From Hyphomicrobium sp. LHD-15 (GTDB taxonomy: Bacteria; Pseudomonadota; Alphaproteobacteria; Rhizobiales; Hyphomicrobiaceae): a stretch of 64,000 nt of DNA. This document shows, piece by piece, positions 1,513 through 16,322 of this stretch; the stretch's first letter is position 1, and the number at the start of each line of letters is the position of its first letter. Made by a program: the position numbers and the translations under genes. The notes under the pieces are model-generated. The model made no database searches and was not told the origin of the DNA. It saw only the letters and a program-made list of their open reading frames with translations. The DNA lies in the NCBI RefSeq assembly GCF_031157355.1, contig NZ_JAVIFT010000005.1, positions 214,818 through 278,817 of the forward strand, written 5' to 3'.

Positions 1513-2802
1513 ATGGTCCATTTCGCCAATCACATCAGCCCAGATCAACTCCCAACCGCGTTCCGCGCGTTGATGCAGATTGTTCCATGGAGTGTCTGGG
1601 AGAAGCGGATTGGAGAGCTTCGGCCTTTGATGAACCGGCTGCCGGCATGGGAGCAATATTTGCGGGAGAGGCATGGCTTAGAATTCGCCCTTGCCGATTC
1701 TCGAGAGTATCTCAGGAACACTGGGCGGTGGCCTTGGCCGCCGCGCACTGCTGACGAGTACCGGCTTGCCGCATTCATCACGGTGCTCGTCCGAACGTTC
1801 GGAAACGTCAGCGATCCAGCGAAGCGTCGACTGGCTGGATCAATACGCAGCGCTCTGGAAAAAGATTCAGGTCTTGGACCATTGGCGTTGGAAATGAAAG
1901 CCACTGGCTTGGCGATGAGATCCGGCTTTGACGTTACGTTCCACGATCTCGAAAATGGCGGCGGATTTGATCTTCTCGCGCAGAAGGGATCTTCGCAAAT
2001 CGAGATCGAGTGCAAACACATTTCGGCGGACATCGGCCGGCAGATCCATCGCCGCAAAGTGTATGAACTTGGTGATAGACTCCAGGGATTTCTGTCAAAC
2101 TTGCTAGACAAATTCGACGGAGGGATGCTGGTCCGGATCAATATCCCAGGACGGCTAACAGGCAATCCTCAGCAACAGAGCGCTATTGTTCGCAATGTTA
2201 TGTCTGCGGCGGGCGGCCAACCTGTTAGCGACGACACCTGCGAAGCGCAGATTGAGCGGTTCTCACTCGAGAACTCACCGTTTTCTGGAGTATCGGGGCA
2301 TCTTTCGACCCTTGAGGACGTTCAGAACTTTACTGCTCGTAGATTCAATCTCGACAACGCTCATATTCTTACCCACTGGCGCCCCGGGAAGGCCGCCGTA
2401 GTTGTTCACATTGCAAGTGCGACGCCTGACAGCGTCATCGACAGACTGTTCAAACACATGATCGATGACACAAAACATCAGCTATCAGGAACTCGGCCTG
2501 GGTGCCTATGCGTGCATCTAGCAGACCTCAGTCCGGAACAGTTGCGTGATCTAGCGAGAGCAGAAAAGTTAGGTGAAGTCACCGGCATCCGTAGAGCGAT
2601 CAGCGCCTTACTGAATAGGCGTAGTCACTTGCATACGGTAGCGTTGCTGACGGACGGGGACGTCAACTTCTATCAGACGCGTATCGGGTCTAAACGAGTG
2701 ACAGAAGTGGTAGAAACTGGGCCAAGTTATGTATTTTACAATCCTGACCACCCCTCCGCAAACGACCCAGCACTAAAGCATTTGTTCGGCGGAAACTCCT
2801 AG
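1513..2802 (+). CDS. PD-(D/E)XK-type nuclease-like protein
   Basis: This is a 429-residue soluble protein. The central region (about residues 136-172) reads as a restriction-endonuclease-like core: a Gly-rich turn, FDLL with the first acidic residue, then a beta strand with IEIECKH. That matches the D...E-x-K active-site signature of the PD-(D/E)XK superfamily. The N-terminal 130 residues are helical. The C-terminal part ends in strands and has no other motif I recognise. No methyltransferase or helicase lies beside it, so it is not a normal restriction system. Base composition is visibly lower in GC than the surroundings, which fits recent transfer. Its end overlaps the convergent SRAP gene by 30 bases. 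No Shine-Dalgarno sequence is obvious at 1513, and an ATG at 1573 is an alternative start. Confidence 0.65.
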   Translation: MVHFANHISPDQLPTAFRALMQIVPWSVWEKRIGELRPLMNRLPAWEQYLRERHGLEFALADSREYLRNTGRWPWPPRTADEYRLAAFITVLVRTFGNVSDPAKRRLAGSIRSALEKDSGLGPLALEMKATGLAMRSGFDVTFHDLENGGGFDLLAQKGSSQIEIECKHISADIGRQIHRRKVYELGDRLQGFLSNLLDKFDGGMLVRINIPGRLTGNPQQQSAIVRNVMSAAGGQPVSDDTCEAQIERFSLENSPFSGVSGHLSTLEDVQNFTARRFNLDNAHILTHWRPGKAAVVVHIASATPDSVIDRLFKHMIDDTKHQLSGTRPGCLCVHLADLSPEQLRDLARAEKLGEVTGIRRAISALLNRRSHLHTVALLTDGDVNFYQTRIGSKRVTEVVETGPSYVFYNPDHPSANDPALKHLFGGNS

Positions 2803-3960
2803 TAGGTCCTGCTTGTCCATTCCGCTCTGCACGATGCGCATGCGCTCGGCCGGATAGGTCCGCACCAGACTGTACGCTGCTTCGGGGCTGCCGGTTAGCC
2901 AGGTCTCGAAGTCCTCGGGCTCGGACAGCAGTACCGGCATGCGGTCGTGCATGATGGTGGCGGTCAGCGCGTTCGGGCTTGTGGTCATGAACGCATAGAC
3001 GTCGACCTCGACCGGCTCGCCGTCCTTTTTCATCGGGCCGCGGTAGCGCTTCCAGATGCCGGGGAACGCGAACAGGGAGCGCGCATCCGAATCGTAGGGC
3101 AAAGTCTCGTCAATTCCGTCGTTTAGAGCGAACCAATGCCACCCGGCGGGCGAATTCGAATCTGGCTCGCAATAGGAGGACGCCGGCACCAGGCAACGCC
3201 GCGCCTCGAAGGATGGCCGCCAGAACGGCGACGTCAGCACGGTGTCGTCGCGCACGTTGGTCACCGGCTTCGGCGCGTAGCCTTTCCGTAGCAGCGGGAA
3301 ACCCCACGTCATCGGCACCAGCTCGCGCTCGCCGTCCGACGCCACGCGCACGACCGGCGCCACCGCCTTCGGAAAGATCGCCGGCATCGGCTCGAACGCA
3401 TAGGCGCGGTTGTCCGAGATCTTGAACGCCCCACGCAGCGCGTCGCGGGTCTTGGTGTTGCTGTAGAGGTTGCACATGTCGCCGAACCTAATTGATCCCA
3501 GCACAGGGGAATAGTCGATCTCGCCGGCTCCCATCGCTTTGTCGGCGAGGTAATGCATGCTCAGCGGCTCGGGCCAGACGGCAGTTCCGGTCCAGCGGTA
3601 GTGTTCGTCGATCGGCGGGTATGCGAATGGCGGCTTTCCGTCCGAATTGGGCCAGCGAACCGTCGTGCGCCGGCCGCCGCAGCGCGTGCAGCGAAATCCT
3701 GTGAGCAGCTGAGATCTCAACGCCTCGCGCCCCCACCGAATGATCAGCGGCGTAAGCGGGAGCGCTGCGCAACGGCCGCATCCCGAAACTTCGCAATAGA
3801 GCCAGAACCACGCGCCACCAGCCGAGCGGATCTCTGCCAGAGTGCGTTCCGGGCTAGGCGACGTGCGGCGCGTGATGCGCAAGCGGCGCTCAAACTCGGC
3901 GCGGCGGGCCACCAGTTCCTCGGGCGTGCATTCCAGCCGATCGTCATTCCTGGATCCCAT
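2773..3960 (-). CDS. SRAP-domain protein (YedK/HMCES family) with N-terminal cysteine-rich extension
   Basis: The last 234 residues are a full SRAP domain. It begins MCNLYSNT at position 3477 and contains the conserved Asn (PVTNVRDDT), Glu (SSYCEP) and His (IMHDRMPVLL). SRAP proteins bind abasic sites in single-stranded DNA and form a thiazolidine crosslink through the cysteine exposed when the initiator Met is removed. Here the frame continues upstream for about 160 residues without a stop. That part holds a candidate zinc-binding module (CEVSGCGRC ... CTRCGG), similar to stand-alone proteins I associate with rhizobia. Either the two parts are fused, which would bury the catalytic cysteine, or SRAP is also started internally at 3477, where only a weak AGG is seen. 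The start at 3960 has GGGAGG very close to the ATG. Confidence 0.8.
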   Translation of the reverse strand: MGSRNDDRLECTPEELVARRAEFERRLRITRRTSPSPERTLAEIRSAGGAWFWLYCEVSGCGRCAALPLTPLIIRWGREALRSQLLTGFRCTRCGGRRTTVRWPNSDGKPPFAYPPIDEHYRWTGTAVWPEPLSMHYLADKAMGAGEIDYSPVLGSIRFGDMCNLYSNTKTRDALRGAFKISDNRAYAFEPMPAIFPKAVAPVVRVASDGERELVPMTWGFPLLRKGYAPKPVTNVRDDTVLTSPFWRPSFEARRCLVPASSYCEPDSNSPAGWHWFALNDGIDETLPYDSDARSLFAFPGIWKRYRGPMKKDGEPVEVDVYAFMTTSPNALTATIMHDRMPVLLSEPEDFETWLTGSPEAAYSLVRTYPAERMRIVQSGMDKQDLLGVSAEQML

Positions 3961-4063: not shown

Positions 4064-4136
4064 ATGCTCGTAGCTCAGCGGATAGAGCGCTCGCTTGCTA
4101 AGCGAGGGGTCGTGGGTTCGATTCCCACCGGGCCCC
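4064..4136 (+). tRNA. Atypical tRNA, anticodon GCU, class I body
   Basis: A cloverleaf can be drawn with a perfect D stem (GCTC/GAGC), a perfect anticodon stem (CTCGC/GCGAG) around loop TTGCTAA, a 5-base variable loop, and a perfect T arm (GTGGG TTCGATT CCCAC). Anticodon GCU reads the serine codons AGC/AGU, but serine tRNAs have a long variable arm and this one does not. The body, with A20 and with C35 and U36 in the anticodon, resembles an arginine tRNA. The top two acceptor pairs (A1-C72, U2-C71) do not pair and CCA is not encoded. A run of eight T follows. It may be a functional odd tRNA or a decayed relic. Confidence 0.65.
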
Positions 4137-4279
4137 TCTCGCTTTTTTTTGGGACTCGATTTCCTTCAGCGTCGCGTCCCAGCGCAACTTCGGCTCGTCA
4201 TAGATCGCCTTATGCTCACGCTTCCTGTTCGGCCGCGAGCACTGAGCGATGCCGACCTTCCCTGCATCCGCATGAAGCG

Positions 4280-4356
4280 TGGCGCGCTCCGCAGGACTCG
4301 AACCTGCAACCCTCGGATTCGAAGTCCGATGCTCTATCCAATTGAGCTAGGAGCGC
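4280..4356 (-). tRNA. tRNA-Arg (anticodon UCG)
   Basis: This is a complete canonical tRNA: acceptor GCGCTCC pairs with GGAGCGC, discriminator G is followed by encoded CCA, the D arm is GCTC/GAGC, and the anticodon stem TCGGA/TCCGA surrounds loop CTTCGAA. It reads CGA. It lies about 140 bases from, and opposite in strand to, the odd GCU tRNA. It may be a chromosomal gene marking an edge of the accessory region, or it may be carried by the element. Confidence 0.92.
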
Positions 4357-5146: not shown

Positions 5147-5911
5147 CTACTCGGCGGCTTCCACCTTTACCGCCGGCTCAAGCAGGGCCCGCTCCACATC
5201 CATCCCGCCATCTTCATCACGATGAAAGCAAAGCAAGACCTTGTGCCCGAGATTTTCCAACTTGGTCGCATAGTATTCAATGCTGTGGCAGGGCACTCCC
5301 GATATCGGAATCGCTTGACCATTGTGCTTCCCGCGCGTGTTGAGGACGATCCCCAGCGCCGCAGAGACGGTCACGGCGTCATCAAAAAAGCACTCGTAAA
5401 AGCCGCCCATGCGATACATCAAGATTGCGCCGGGATGTGCAGCCCTTAGCTCCAGATATTGGTCGATCGAATTGGTCTTTGGCTTCGCCGTCGGAGTTTG
5501 CACGCGCTCGTTCTTGGCAAGTTCGTCAGACAGCTCCAACCCATCCAGGCAAAGACCGAAGCTCTCACGCCTCACGCCGTTTTGGCGGCAGAGGAATGCG
5601 CCGAGATTCCGCAAGCCCTCGTGCAACCTTTTTACCTCAGGATGATCGAAGCCTTCGGCGTCTGCGACGTCGCGTAGGGTCGCTGCGGTGGCTTCCAAAA
5701 ACACAACGTACTGTTGTTCTTGTCCAGGAGCGAGTTCTGCCACAGAAGCGATATCCGAAAGCTCCTCACCACGCTGGCAATGCCCGGCGTGCTCTTCCTC
5801 CAACCCATCGACACCCGGCGCGCCAGGCTCCGCAGTGCTCAACTGCGCAAACACCGGAGAATCTATCCTCTGCAGCTCAACGAGCTCGTTCGCAATCTCT
5901 GTGAAATTCAT
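5147..5911 (-). CDS. Stand-alone MutS domain I (mismatch-recognition domain) protein
   Basis: This is a 254-residue protein. Residues 148-232 match the N-terminal mismatch-recognition domain of MutS: QYLELRAAHPGAILMYRMG, then GFYECFFDDA with the Phe-x-Glu that contacts a mispaired base, then IPISGVPCHSIEYYATKL. Full MutS is over 800 residues with connector, clamp and ATPase domains; none is present here. The first 140 residues are acidic and helical and unlike MutS. A binder without an ATPase could mark lesions, compete with host MutS, or serve another DNA-binding role on the element. The start is fixed by an AAAAAGGAG site. The gene is divergent from an XRE regulator with a perfect palindrome between them, so it is probably repressed by that regulator. 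Confidence 0.75.
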   Translation of the reverse strand: MNFTEIANELVELQRIDSPVFAQLSTAEPGAPGVDGLEEEHAGHCQRGEELSDIASVAELAPGQEQQYVVFLEATAATLRDVADAEGFDHPEVKRLHEGLRNLGAFLCRQNGVRRESFGLCLDGLELSDELAKNERVQTPTAKPKTNSIDQYLELRAAHPGAILMYRMGGFYECFFDDAVTVSAALGIVLNTRGKHNGQAIPISGVPCHSIEYYATKLENLGHKVLLCFHRDEDGGMDVERALLEPAVKVEAAE

Positions 5912-5926
5912 GACGCAACTCCTTTT

Positions 5927-5943
5927 TCACGGATTTTCCGTGA
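5927..5943. promoter_or_regulatory. Palindromic operator candidate
   Basis: TCACGGA TTT TCCGTGA is a perfect 7-bp inverted repeat lying 16 bases upstream of the MutS-domain gene start and 84 bases upstream of the XRE regulator. Its size and position between divergent genes fit an operator bound by the XRE dimer. Because it lies next to the Shine-Dalgarno region, it could also form a small hairpin in the mRNA. Confidence 0.5.
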
Positions 5944-6026
5944 AGGCGAGATTCGCATGCAGAGAGGCAACGCGTCAATGCCGCCATTGGTTTGACTCGA
6001 ATCTTTTACGCTGGCTTGTCGGCCAT

Positions 6027-6263
6027 ATGATCACCGCCGGACAATGTCGAGCTGCACGAGGCCTGCTTGGATGGACTCAGGAGCAGCTTGCCGGCGCCGC
6101 AGGAATTGGTCTCTCGTCGATCCTGTACCTTGAGCGCGAGAAGCGCACGGTGTCAGACGAGATCAACGTAAGCATTCAGAAGGCGCTCGAGCGCGCCGGC
6201 GTGGAATTCATCCCGGAGAATGGCGGCGGTGCCGGCGTCCGTCTGAAGCGTCGCAAAACCTAA
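6027..6263 (+). CDS. XRE-family helix-turn-helix regulator (78 aa)
   Basis: The start is MITAGQCRAARGLLGWTQ, a typical opening of short rhizobial XRE proteins; longer in-frame upstream sequence lacks this signature. The helix-turn-helix covers about residues 1-60 (WTQEQLAGAAGIG, then SSILYLERE). The tail (ALERAGVEFIPENGGGAGVRL) is also typical of the family. It is divergent from the MutS-domain gene and probably represses it, itself, or both through the palindrome at 5927-5943. Its stop overlaps the convergent tape measure gene by four bases. Confidence 0.85.
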   Translation: MITAGQCRAARGLLGWTQEQLAGAAGIGLSSILYLEREKRTVSDEINVSIQKALERAGVEFIPENGGGAGVRLKRRKT

Positions 6264-8268: not shown

Positions 8269-8475
8269 CTATTGCCTCGGAAGTAGCCGCACGGCGTCAG
8301 TAACGTTTTGTTCGAGATACTGGCGGCGGTCCTGCTCGAGCTGATGGCGCACCCGGAAGAATTCCAAGGCGTGCCCATGCCAGAATCTAATTTTCTCGGG
8401 AGTCCACTGCTCGATGTACCAGGGGTCTACGCCGCAGATTAGCCAGAGCTCGACTGCGGCTTGTTCAAATTTCCC
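8269..8475 (-). CDS. -1 frame extension of the tail assembly chaperone (GpE/T-like)
   Basis: This frame has no credible start of its own and is entered by -1 slippage at 8469-8475. The 66-residue extension begins FEQAAVELWLICGV and has a Trp-rich motif (DPWYIEQWTPEKI) like the small GpE-type domains that bind tape measure proteins. It ends two bases before the tape measure start. In phages such as lambda (G and GT) and P2 (E and E+E') the frameshifted fusion links the chaperone to the tape measure protein. The predicted fusion is about 183 residues. Confidence 0.75.
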   Translation of the reverse strand, partial: GKFEQAAVELWLICGVDPWYIEQWTPEKIRFWHGHALEFFRVRHQLEQDRRQYLEQNVTDAVRLLPRQ

Positions 8476-8819
8476 ACGACGAAGACGTTCACCGCTTCGA
8501 CGACGGCCTTGCTCAGGTTGTAACCGTCGATTGGATCGAGCGTGGAGAGCACAATCTGGTCAATGTTGGAAAGCCGAGACGCCCAGCGCATAAGTCGCTG
8601 CAGATCGATCTTGCTTTCCATCTGACGGGCCTCGCCGTCGGCGTTCGAAAACACAAGGTTCTCGACCGGGCCGATCTCGATAAACTCGCCGAACTGGGGC
8701 TTTCGAAGAACGATCTCTCGAACGTCGCCTTGGTGGGTCTTGAGCGGCCGCGAGAGCGGCACGGTAGCGCAGGCAGACACATTAGCTGGGGTGGAAATTG
8801 CTACGGCAGCGTTTTGCAT
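8439..8819 (-). CDS. Phage tail assembly chaperone (zero-frame product)
   Basis: This is a 126-residue protein starting MQNAAVAIST at 8819. The middle (KTHQGDVREIVLRKPQFGEFIEIG) and end (GYNLSKAVVEAVNVFVV) fit the Mu gp41 / P2 GpE class of tail assembly proteins. It is expected to coat the tape measure protein until the tube is built. An in-frame upstream extension to 8909 exists but is less typical. Near its 3' end lies the slippery heptamer that yields a longer fusion with the -1 frame. Confidence 0.75.
   Translation of the reverse strand: MQNAAVAISTPANVSACATVPLSRPLKTHQGDVREIVLRKPQFGEFIEIGPVENLVFSNADGEARQMESKIDLQRLMRWASRLSNIDQIVLSTLDPIDGYNLSKAVVEAVNVFVVGNLNKPQSSSG
8469..8475 (-). promoter_or_regulatory. 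Programmed -1 ribosomal frameshift site
   Basis: On the minus strand the zero-frame codons GTG GGA AAT TTG contain G GGA AAT, a canonical X XXY YYZ heptamer that differs only in the last base from the GGGAAAG site of lambda G/T. A second heptamer, A AAT TTG, overlaps it directly. Slippage leads into a 66-codon open frame ending beside the tape measure start. Confidence 0.75.
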
Positions 8820-8862
8820 AGTGCGTTCTTTCAATGTTGAAGATTTGGGCCAGTCAAATGGT

Positions 8863-9024
8863 TCAGCGTCTGGTCTCGCTTTCGCCGCCCCGTCGCGGTC
8901 GGCTAACATCAGCTGTGGCCGGCAGGATGCTGCTCAGGTCGAATTGGAGCAGGCGATCGCATTCACGGCGCCGGGAATGTGCAAGCAGCCGAAGAACGGC
9001 AGGGTTATTCGCGTCCAGGTTCAT
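8863..9024 (-). CDS. Small hypothetical protein (53 aa) overlapping two neighbours
   Basis: The start ATG at 9024 follows a very strong GAGGAGGT eight bases upstream, inside the 3' end of the gene that ends at 9005. The product begins MNLDANNPAVLRLL and is Arg-rich, with a basic tail (SRPRRGGESETRR). It fills the gap between its neighbours in the tail operon, and the 20-base overlap is usual for phage genes. No family is recognised; it may be a small morphogenesis protein. Confidence 0.55.
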   Translation of the reverse strand: MNLDANNPAVLRLLAHSRRRECDRLLQFDLSSILPATADVSRPRRGGESETRR

Positions 9025-13781: not shown

Positions 13782-13997
13782 TCAAATAGCCGGCCGGCCG
13801 AGATGTGCCGTGACCTGCCCGTAGTCGTAGAAAACGCGCCCCCCAGTCCTGATGGGTGTCAACAGGCCGCGATCTTCCCAGTCGTAAAGCGTCCTCGGCT
13901 GCACCTGCAGAATGCGAGCAGCGTCGGCACGCGTGATGCGGTTGCCAGGCAAAATGCTGACCTCCACCAACACGCGCTTCTCAACAATTTCCTGCAT
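13782..13997 (-). CDS. MerR/excisionase-type HTH protein (71 aa)
   Basis: The start at 13997 (MQEIVEKRVLVEV) has GGAG seven bases upstream. Residues 20-60 (ITRADAARILQVQPRTLYDWEDRGLL) are a helix-turn-helix of the MerR/HTH_17 type used by excisionases and phage switch proteins, followed by a wing (GGRVFYDYGQV). It is divergent from the RHH gene at 14115 and shares its control region, with a palindrome at 14042-14061. It probably acts as early regulator or recombination directionality factor. Confidence 0.7.
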   Translation of the reverse strand: MQEIVEKRVLVEVSILPGNRITRADAARILQVQPRTLYDWEDRGLLTPIRTGGRVFYDYGQVTAHLGRPAI

Positions 13998-14041
13998 TAG
14001 ACGTCTCCACACAGGCTTGCGATTCGTTATTTATGACGATA

Positions 14042-14768: not shown

Positions 14769-15047
14769 ATGCTTGTGATGCCTCGCGCGCGGTCCCGTCA
14801 TGAGATCCTGCCGGCGAGCCTCCCACCGCGCGGGCTTTCGCGTGAGGAGGCCGCGGCTTACATCGGGATAGGCGCCACCAAGTTCGATGAAATGGTCGTC
14901 GACGGCCGCATGCCGAACCCCAAGCGTATCGACGGCCGCAAGGTCTGGGACCGGCTGCGGCTTGACTCCGCCTTCGCCGCGTTGCCCTCTGAAGGCGGCG
15001 AGGAACCGGCGGACACGGATGATCGGTGGAGCCGCGTCGCCGTATGA
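14769..15047 (+). CDS. Excisionase-like HTH protein (92 aa)
   Basis: Residues about 22-65 (LSREEAAAYIGIGATKFDEMV, then RMPNPKRIDGRKVWDRLRL) match the HTH_17/AlpA-type fold common in small proteins just upstream of rhizobial integrase genes. The stop overlaps the integrase start by ATGA, so the two are probably translated together. Likely role: bending att DNA as a recombination directionality factor, or activating the integrase. An ATG at 14778 is an alternative start. Confidence 0.75.
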   Translation: MLVMPRARSRHEILPASLPPRGLSREEAAAYIGIGATKFDEMVVDGRMPNPKRIDGRKVWDRLRLDSAFAALPSEGGEEPADTDDRWSRVAV

Positions 15048-16189
15048 GGGGCGCAGCGGACATGATCACCGTCAAGATTCCCTATGTTCATGAGGACGTT
15101 GACCGGCACGGCAACGTGCGGATCTACTTCTGGCGCAAGGGCGAGCGCAAGGTCAGAATCCGCGAGACACCCGGAACCGAGGCGTTCGAAAAACGCTATC
15201 GTGAACTCCTGGCCGCCAACACAGCCCCAAGCCCGCTAACGGAAGAAGCGCCAGGGTCGAAGCCGATAGCGGGGACCTGGCGCTGGCTTTGCGTCTGCTA
15301 TTTCAAATCGATGACGTTTTTGACGCTCGACCCTGAAACCCAGGCTACGCGGCGCGGCGTGCTGGAGCGCACGTTCCAGGAACTGATCCACCCCGAATCG
15401 TCAGACAGATTCGCGAACCTGCCGGTGCGGTTGATGAGCGCCAAGCACGTCGAAGTCCTGCGTGACCGGAAGCTGAAAACGCCGAACGCAGCCAACGATC
15501 GCGTGAAGGTCGCTCGCTACGTCTTCAACTGGGCAATGGAGCAAAAGCCACCGCTCTCGATTGGGAACCCGGCTCAGGGCGTGCGCCTGATCAAGGTTGC
15601 ATCTTCAGGCTGGCACACCTGGACCACGGAGGAGGTTGCGAAATACGAGCAGCGGCATCCCGTCGGAACCAAGGCTAGGCTGGCGCTCGCCCTGTTCATG
15701 TTCACAGGGGCGCGCCGGTCCGACGCCGTACGGCTCGGCCGTCAGCACGCAAGCAGTGGGTGGTTCAAATTCCGCCAGTTCAAGAACCGCAATCGGCACC
15801 CGGTCGATATCGAGATCCCGATTCTGCCGGAACTTCAGCGCATCATCGCCGCGAGCCCCACCGGCGACCTGACCTACCTTGTCACAGACTACGGGAAACC
15901 GTTTTCCACAGCCGGATTCGGCAACAAGATGCGCCAGTGGTGTGACGAGGCAGGCCTGCCTCAGTGCTCAGCCCACGGGCTCAGAAAGGCAGGCGCTACG
16001 CTGGCCGCAGAGAATGGGGCGACCGAGCTGCAGTTGATGGCCATTTTCGGCTGGAAAACCATGCAGGAGGCCGAGCGTTACACGCGCGCCGCGCGCCGCA
16101 AGAAAATGGCCGGCGACGCCATGGGATTGCTGCAGGGGCCGAGGTCGAAGAACGAGAATAAATCTAGAACAAAAGTTTCCCACCGCTAG
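15044..16189 (+). CDS. Tyrosine recombinase (integrase)
   Basis: The length is 381 residues from the ATG that overlaps the previous stop (ATGA); starts at 15026 (GTG) and 15062 (ATG, AGGGG upstream) are also possible. The N-terminal part carries a SAM-like core-binding domain. The catalytic domain shows Arg in FTGARRSDAVRL, His-x-x-Arg in SAHGLRKAG, and the nucleophile in AERYTRAA. The usual second His is Trp (FGWKTM), as is tolerated in the family. It lies next to tRNA-Glu and is the likely agent of integration there. Confidence 0.9.
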   Translation: MRGAADMITVKIPYVHEDVDRHGNVRIYFWRKGERKVRIRETPGTEAFEKRYRELLAANTAPSPLTEEAPGSKPIAGTWRWLCVCYFKSMTFLTLDPETQATRRGVLERTFQELIHPESSDRFANLPVRLMSAKHVEVLRDRKLKTPNAANDRVKVARYVFNWAMEQKPPLSIGNPAQGVRLIKVASSGWHTWTTEEVAKYEQRHPVGTKARLALALFMFTGARRSDAVRLGRQHASSGWFKFRQFKNRNRHPVDIEIPILPELQRIIAASPTGDLTYLVTDYGKPFSTAGFGNKMRQWCDEAGLPQCSAHGLRKAGATLAAENGATELQLMAIFGWKTMQEAERYTRAARRKKMAGDAMGLLQGPRSKNENKSRTKVSHR

Positions 16190-16210: not shown

Positions 16211-16247
16211 ACCTAAGTTGCTGATATTGCATGGGAAAAAAGGCGGG

Positions 16248-16322
16248 TGGCGGTCCCTACGGGAGTCGAACCCGTCTTTCAAGATTGAAAATCTCGCGTC
16301 CTAACCGATAGACGAAGGGACC
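16248..16322 (-). tRNA. tRNA-Glu (anticodon UUC)
   Basis: Complete tRNA: acceptor GGTCCCT/AGGGACC, discriminator G, encoded CCA, D arm GTCT/GGAC, anticodon stem CGAGA/TCTTG around TTTTCAA, and T arm ACGGG/CCCGT. Its 3' end faces the integrase gene and is the probable attachment site of the element. The tRNA itself is intact, as expected when the element restores the 3' end. Confidence 0.95.

What the first reader, a model, noticed from the sequence alone, without database searches (positions are those of the whole stretch)
5147..5911. Orphan MutS mismatch-recognition domain carried by a mobile element
The FYE-containing domain I is present without clamp or ATPase and is joined to an unknown acidic N-terminal half. 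It could bind mismatches or modified bases and block host mismatch repair during recombination of the element, or it may have become a new DNA-binding regulator. Divergent XRE gene and operator suggest tight control.
Basis: partly seen in the sequence, partly recalled or inferred. Interest (0 to 1): 0.7.

Follow-up and report, generated by a model that had tools for sequence, protein, structure and literature searches.

The report
Lone mismatch-sensor domain on phage island
A likely phage-derived DNA island in a bacterium carries a gene for just the mismatch-reading piece of the repair protein MutS, joined to a front half for which no relative was found; the protein would likely bind misshapen DNA to shield the island, a kind of gene met before in gut phages and conjugative elements but seen in no other bacterium of the two related sets searched here.

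The parts
5147..5911 (-). 254-aa two-part protein: helical acidic N-half plus MutS domain I
5174..5476 (-). MutS domain I, residues 146-246 (structure match); Pfam match covers residues 148-233
5393..5401 (-). Phe171-Tyr-Glu173, equivalent of E. coli MutS Phe36-x-Glu38 mismatch wedge (role and numbering recalled; E38 mutants appear in PDB titles)
   Evidence: alignment A2, both residues invariant in 27 rows
5477..5911 (-). N-half, residues 1-145, pI 4.57, predicted helices, no relative found
5919..5925 (-). Shine-Dalgarno AAAGGAG of the MutS-I gene
   Evidence: sequence
5926..5944 (.). palindrome TTCACGGA-TTT-TCCGTGAA, candidate operator
   Evidence: unique in genome; 60 of 5000 shuffles
6027..6263 (+). 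XRE-type HTH protein, 78 aa, divergent
   Evidence: PF01381 29.9 bits
6260..8266 (-). tail tape measure protein
   Evidence: PF10145 E 4.8e-19; phrog_28 E 7.6e-21
8439..8909 (-). tail assembly chaperone-like protein (weak match)
   Evidence: PF10109 E 0.0076, under cut-off; 33% to a relative prophage locus L146
12753..13685 (-). phage replication initiation O-like protein
   Evidence: phrog_391 E 1.7e-8
13782..14012 (-). MerR/excisionase-like HTH protein
   Evidence: PF00376 E 7.2e-8; phrog_66 E 8.1e-7
14769..15047 (+). excisionase/regulator-like protein
   Evidence: phrog_25900 E 1.4e-17, phrog_66 E 4.4e-5
15026..16189 (+). tyrosine integrase
   Evidence: PF00589 E 4.4e-11; phrog_1 E 9.3e-25
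16247..16264 (.). 18-bp direct repeat at the 3' end of tRNA-Glu; second copy 6028 bases left of the window (L128:13789)
16248..16322 (-). tRNA-Glu, likely insertion site
2773..3960 (-). SRAP protein inside the repeat-bounded stretch
   Evidence: PF02586 E 6.4e-30

Best explanation
A gene on a repeat-bounded, integrase-bearing stretch encodes the MutS mismatch-reading domain without the rest of MutS, and its protein likely binds mispaired, looped or single-stranded stretches of the element's own DNA, which would shield it from host mismatch repair and nucleases during entry, replication or excision. Shown: intact two-part ORF, MutS-I sequence match, kept Phe-x-Glu residues, divergent XRE gene, unique palindrome, integrase and tRNA-Glu repeats. 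Predicted: the MutS-I fold and the helical N-half. Inferred: DNA binding by the lone domain; that the N-half supplies a second contact (dimerisation or a docking site) that the MutS clamp would otherwise give; that the XRE protein represses the gene through the palindrome next to its ribosome-binding site and releases it on induction or transfer; and that the benefit is protection of element DNA.
For: MutS-I sequence and predicted fold. 34 of 53 positions that are at least 95% conserved in the other 26 rows of A2 are kept, the Phe-x-Glu included. Same domain in mobile elements: Iyer 2017 proposes that it recognises short ssDNA stretches of the element after entry (passages). Of 80 viral-contig loci fetched (of 150 confirmed), 67 hold MutS-I in complete frames that are not MutS, 27 of the 67 with at least 80 residues before a C-terminal MutS-I, as here. 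In 145 same-strand neighbour proteins of such loci the commonest Pfam families were ArdC-N (5) and MPTase-PolyVal (5), with N6_N4_Mtase 2, DUF2958 2, ArdA 1, RadC 1, PcfK 1, and the commonest named PHROG was an anti-restriction protein (5): an antirestriction and establishment setting. Phage B124-14 has an 81-aa MutS-I gene beside resolvase, nuclease and antirepressor genes. The island also bears an SRAP gene.
Against: The protein is acidic overall (pI 4.78), though over the same 96 residues the domain's net charge (-3) equals that of the host's MutS domain. In MutS the clamp supplies much DNA binding (recalled), so a lone domain may bind weakly. No relative of the whole protein was found, so no co-conservation can be shown. 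Only 37 Pfam families matched among the 145 neighbours, most once, and some are structural (SPP1 portal 2). Asp170 of the RMGDFYE motif is Gly here. None of nine relative prophage loci has a MutS-I match, so the gene is not a fixed part of such phages.
Confidence: 0.4

Rival explanations
1. Mismatch-repair antagonist: the lone domain competes with, or pairs with, host MutS and dampens repair or anti-recombination while the element recombines.
For: Kept mismatch wedge; host has an intact mutS to act on; an element that recombines would gain (inference).
Against: No direct evidence; 19 of 53 strongly conserved positions have changed, five of them after Val225, the side that leads to the connector domain (location recalled), so pairing with host MutS is not favoured by sequence.
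Confidence: 0.2
2. New DNA-binding regulator: with the XRE protein it forms a small switch controlling the island's genes.
For: Divergent pair with a palindrome in the 115-bp gap.
Against: The XRE match to an antitoxin model is below its cut-off (TIGR03070, 35.3 against 71.65 bits); MutS-I reads distortion, not sequence, in MutS (recalled); palindrome support is modest (60 of 5000 shuffles).
Confidence: 0.15
3. Decaying leftover: a captured mutS piece fused to junk on a degraded prophage, without function.
For: No clear head, portal or large terminase gene among the island proteins scanned; no relatives of the protein found.
Against: Open frame with a good ribosome-binding site after a branch of 2.1 to 2.7 changes per site; coding-type GC by codon position (0.66, 0.40, 0.65); conserved core kept.
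Confidence: 0.15
4. MSL-type accessory of a diversity-generating retroelement.
For: MSL proteins are given Pfam PF01624 (PMC10053308, passages).
Against: No RVT_1 match in the whole genome. A motif search flagged no such reverse transcriptase in the 80 viral-contig loci; RVT_1 in 1 of 145 neighbour proteins, so the motif search may miss some.
Confidence: 0.05

Closest known systems
MutS-I domain of polyvalent proteins (Iyer et al. 2017, PMC5512222)
   Same: MutS domain I outside MutS, on a mobile element, joined to other modules.
   Different: Those are reported from Bacteroidetes and Firmicutes, about 80% with ArdC-N (passages); here no ArdC-N, an unmatched N-half, and an unnamed host whose MutS groups with that of Methylobacterium.
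Bacteroides phage B124-14 ORF064c, 'putative mismatch repair protein' (HE608841.1)
   Same: Phage-borne MutS-I without the rest of MutS.
   Different: 81 aa, no N-half; 31% identity over the domain.
N-part plus MutS-I proteins of IMG/VR contigs (e.g. L219, L222, L241, L253)
   Same: Same layout and size, 220-261 aa with C-terminal MutS-I.
   Different: The N-parts of 14 of them do not match the window's (hhalign probability 0.85%; score within the range of shuffles).
DNA mismatch repair protein MutS, domain I
   Different: No connector, core, clamp, ATPase or dimer domain.
DGR accessory MSL (PF01624; PMC10053308)
   Same: Protein given the MutS-I family.
   Different: No reverse-transcriptase match in this genome.

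Membership tests
MutS (full protein) | mismatch-recognition domain I | tested here: met
MutS (full protein) | connector, core, clamp and ATPase domains | tested here: not met
   254-aa ORF, only PF01624 found; NCBIfam MutS models far under cut-off, 92.9 of 480 and 88.6 of 641.7 bits
MutS-I proteins of mobile elements | MutS-I outside MutS | tested here: met
MutS-I proteins of mobile elements | encoded on a phage, plasmid or integrative element | tested here: met
   integrase, phage genes, 18-bp repeats at tRNA-Glu; mobility itself not shown
MutS-I proteins of mobile elements | partner module such as ArdC-N, MPTase, ParB | tested here: not met
   N-half matches no Pfam family at E 1 or less; about 80% of polyvalent cases have ArdC-N and 24 of 67 viral frames are nearly bare domains, so not strictly defining
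MutS-I proteins of mobile elements | common descent with the Bacteroidetes-type mobile MutS-I | tested here: inconclusive
   p-AU 0.595 for the window with 19 other rows of that clade, 0.546 for the window with 12 related MutS rows; an earlier set with two very long rows gave 0.0106 against the first
DGR accessory MSL | PF01624 domain | tested here: met
DGR accessory MSL | DGR reverse transcriptase in the same element | tested here: not met
   no RVT_1 match in own genome
type II toxin-antitoxin pair | co-directed two-gene operon with a recognised antitoxin | tested here: not met
   genes are divergent; TIGR03070 35.3 bits, cut-off 71.65
mismatch-binding protein | binds mismatched DNA | not testable with these tools
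   needs purified protein

The most novel reading that the evidence does not exclude
A mobile element has turned the mismatch sensor of MutS into a free-standing anti-repair factor: the N-half replaces the MutS clamp as a dimerising handle, letting the lone sensor cap mismatches and loops in the element's DNA so that host MutS cannot start repair or reject recombination.
Probability: 0.15. Interest if true: 0.75.

Novelty: new variant of a known kind. Interest (0 to 1): 0.4.

Why it matters
MutS-I proteins on viral contigs are numerous (67 of 80 fetched loci), yet no function test was seen in the passages read. A small two-part protein with the canonical Phe-x-Glu wedge is an easy test case for whether mobile elements use a mismatch sensor to protect their DNA or to blunt host mismatch repair.

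Tried and rejected

Relatives elsewhere: viral contigs with the single protein, none. Domain alignment A1 in viral contigs: best 80 of 398 confirmed were fetched; the nine with frames under 600 aa all read as MutS, eight cut by an end of the stretch and one (L076) closed early. Genome contigs: 34 of 92 stretches confirmed; by frame length MutS, three of them cut at the end. Protein search with A1 returned 7993 matches, the 120 listed being short MutS-type pieces, uninformative. Plasmids: 54 records, 40 listed; six looked at: four annotated MutS, one unannotated 936-aa MutS (L007), one fragment on an Acinetobacter plasmid. Phage records: 29 with the domain at E up to 5; 14 looked at, five MutS-length, nine not MutS. 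The tape measure protein has no match in the phage records.

Surveys with PF01624: order, 297 genomes, three with two matches: own; G097, second in a 938-aa frame; G297, split by contigs. G016's single match lies in a 300-aa frame, but MutS goes on in the same frame for 615 residues, so it is an interrupted mutS. Class, 387 genomes, three with two matches: own; G565, split by a contig end; G673, two long frames. A few genomes are in both sets. Frame lengths were listed only for the best matches, so genomes with one match were not all inspected.

Empty-site check: six same-genus genomes have the tRNA-Glu beside the same 618-aa gene; none of 19 island proteins hits within the stretches fetched (up to 11.8 kb, one only 349 bases). 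The gene left of the island was not seen beside it in any of the six, whose assemblies are partly fragmented, so no clean empty site was shown.

Tree: placement of the window unresolved; the first test against the mobile rows (p 0.0106) did not hold with two long rows removed and ten added (p 0.595).

Phe-x-Glu in the 67 viral rows: the script counted 59; of the 8 others it printed, 6 keep it (it had caught an earlier tyrosine-arginine), so 65 by eye; one of the two search patterns contained this motif, so the figure is biased.

Full report

The N-half. Residues 1-145 are acidic (27 D/E, 13 K/R, pI 4.57) and predicted helical: two helices at 65-86 and 91-111 with block pLDDT mostly 83-87 in the full model, and helices of low confidence when folded alone. 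Sequence searches found no relative and fold searches nothing above chance. Over 96 residues the MutS-I part has net charge -3, the same as the host's own MutS domain, so the extra acidity lies in the N-half and the tail.

The carrier. An 18-bp direct repeat lies at the 3' end of tRNA-Glu (16247-16264) and 6028 bases left of the window start, bounding about 22.3 kb. Inside are a tyrosine integrase, an excisionase-like protein, a phage O-like replication protein, a tape measure protein and a weakly matched tail chaperone, but no clear head, portal or large terminase gene among the proteins scanned. Tape measure relatives occur in 10 of 99 genomes of the family, own included; none of the nine other loci, 18-19 kb each, has a MutS-I match. 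One of them (L146) also shares the chaperone and the 180-aa protein, so the island is likely a stripped relative of a tailed prophage. In six genomes of the genus the tRNA-Glu sits beside the same gene without the island genes tested; the left flank is not comparable, so the empty site is not proven.

Control region. The XRE gene (6027-6263) diverges from the MutS-I gene across 115 bp. A perfect 8-bp inverted repeat with a 3-bp spacer abuts the ribosome-binding site of the MutS-I gene; it is the only such site in the genome within two mismatches, and 60 of 5000 shuffles of the gap contain one as good. A repressor operator is plausible, not shown.

Not a broken mutS. The host has a separate mutS in a 966-aa frame. 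The window's domain is 49-50% identical to it, with an end branch of 2.1 to 2.7 changes per site, yet the frame is open. In PF01624 surveys of 297 genomes of the order and 387 of the class, two genomes besides the own had a second match in the first set and two in the second: a contig split and a 938-aa frame, a contig split and two long frames. One 300-aa frame (G016) proved to be an interrupted mutS. Frame lengths of all single-match genomes were not listed.

What it resembles. Iyer et al. 2017 (PMC5512222, passages) describe MutS-I in polyvalent proteins of Bacteroidetes and Firmicutes, about 80% with ArdC-N, then the only instance outside MutS, and suggest that it recognises short ssDNA stretches of the element shortly after entry. 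PMC10053308 (passages) reports PF01624 for the DGR accessory MSL. BFVD lists short MutS-I entries of 74, 84 and 153 aa from tailed phages and one of 135 aa from Klosneuvirus. Phage B124-14 has an 81-aa one; of 14 phage-record loci looked at, nine are not MutS. With an alignment of eight such domains, one full MutS (L159) and the window (A3) I scanned viral contigs: 150 of 186 candidates confirmed, best 80 fetched. Of these 80, 67 are complete frames with fewer than 600 residues from the domain on, 11 are MutS-length, 2 are cut. Layouts of the 67: 24 nearly bare domains, 27 with at least 80 residues before a C-terminal MutS-I, 16 other; some N-parts read as ParB-like or ArdC-like (by eye). Among 145 same-strand neighbour proteins (of 151 such, out of 184 neighbours of 48 non-redundant loci) the commonest Pfam families were ArdC-N and MPTase-PolyVal (5 each), with two or fewer each of methylases, DUF2958, DUF3560, SPP1 portal, ArdA, RadC, PcfK and others. 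The window protein is therefore one of a known kind, with a new N-half and in an unnamed host whose MutS groups with that of Methylobacterium.

Origin. Identity is highest to related bacterial MutS (48-53% for ten of twelve rows), but the tree does not decide between capture from such a MutS and membership in the mobile clade (p-AU 0.546 and 0.595). The 17 mobile rows and two MutS rows (one from a Bacteroides plasmid record) form one side of a branch at 100/99.

How it likely works. The retained wedge and fold, the company kept by its kin, and the SRAP gene on the same island favour an element-protecting binder of distorted or single-stranded DNA, switched by the XRE repressor. DNA binding, repression and protection are all inferred. 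The anti-repair rival and the regulator rival remain open; a decayed leftover is less likely; a DGR role is unlikely because the genome has no RVT_1 match.

Literature limits. Searches were: 'polyvalent proteins' with MutS, 'MutS domain I' with phage, PF01624 with prophage, DGR with MutS-like and with MSL, B124-14 with mismatch repair (listing only), MutS domain terms (listing only). No paper testing a lone MutS-I protein of a mobile element appeared in these; most subscription papers are not held.

Noticed in passing
L128:13998-18143 (left of window, inside the island): 1381-aa protein with an N-terminal HTH and a weak match to PD-Lambda-4_A (E 4.3e-5), a possible defence gene at the island's left end.
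   Followed up: no
window 1513-2802: 429-aa protein with a very weak Mrr_cat match (E 0.06), next to the SRAP gene.
   Followed up: no
window 4064-4356: tRNA-Ser and tRNA-Arg genes lie inside the repeat-bounded island; cargo or nested insertion sites.
   Followed up: no
L003, L004, L006: Acetobacteraceae plasmids carry a full mutS; in L003 and L006 beside a T4SS DNA-binding protein gene and in L003 a MobF relaxase, in L004 near TraM-type and DUF1173 genes; the three form one strong clade.
   Followed up: partly
many of L028-L107: Many IMG/VR prophage contigs appear to end close behind a host-type mutS (judged from locus and contig lengths), as if the prophages sit next to mutS or were cut there.
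   Followed up: no
L200, L250, L257, L268, L272: Viral-contig proteins that read by eye as ParB-like partition proteins fused to MutS-I; not checked with a family model.
   Followed up: no
L153:3479-4471: 331-aa protein that reads by eye as a PcfK-like N-part with MutS-I behind it, on a human faecal contig.
   Followed up: no
L005:4929-5333: Acinetobacter indicus plasmid pXG01-X3 holds an unannotated 134-aa mutS fragment a few kilobases from an integrase gene, a likely recent truncation.
   Followed up: no
L021 (G016): A same-family genome has mutS interrupted after about 300 codons, the rest following in the same frame.
   Followed up: partly
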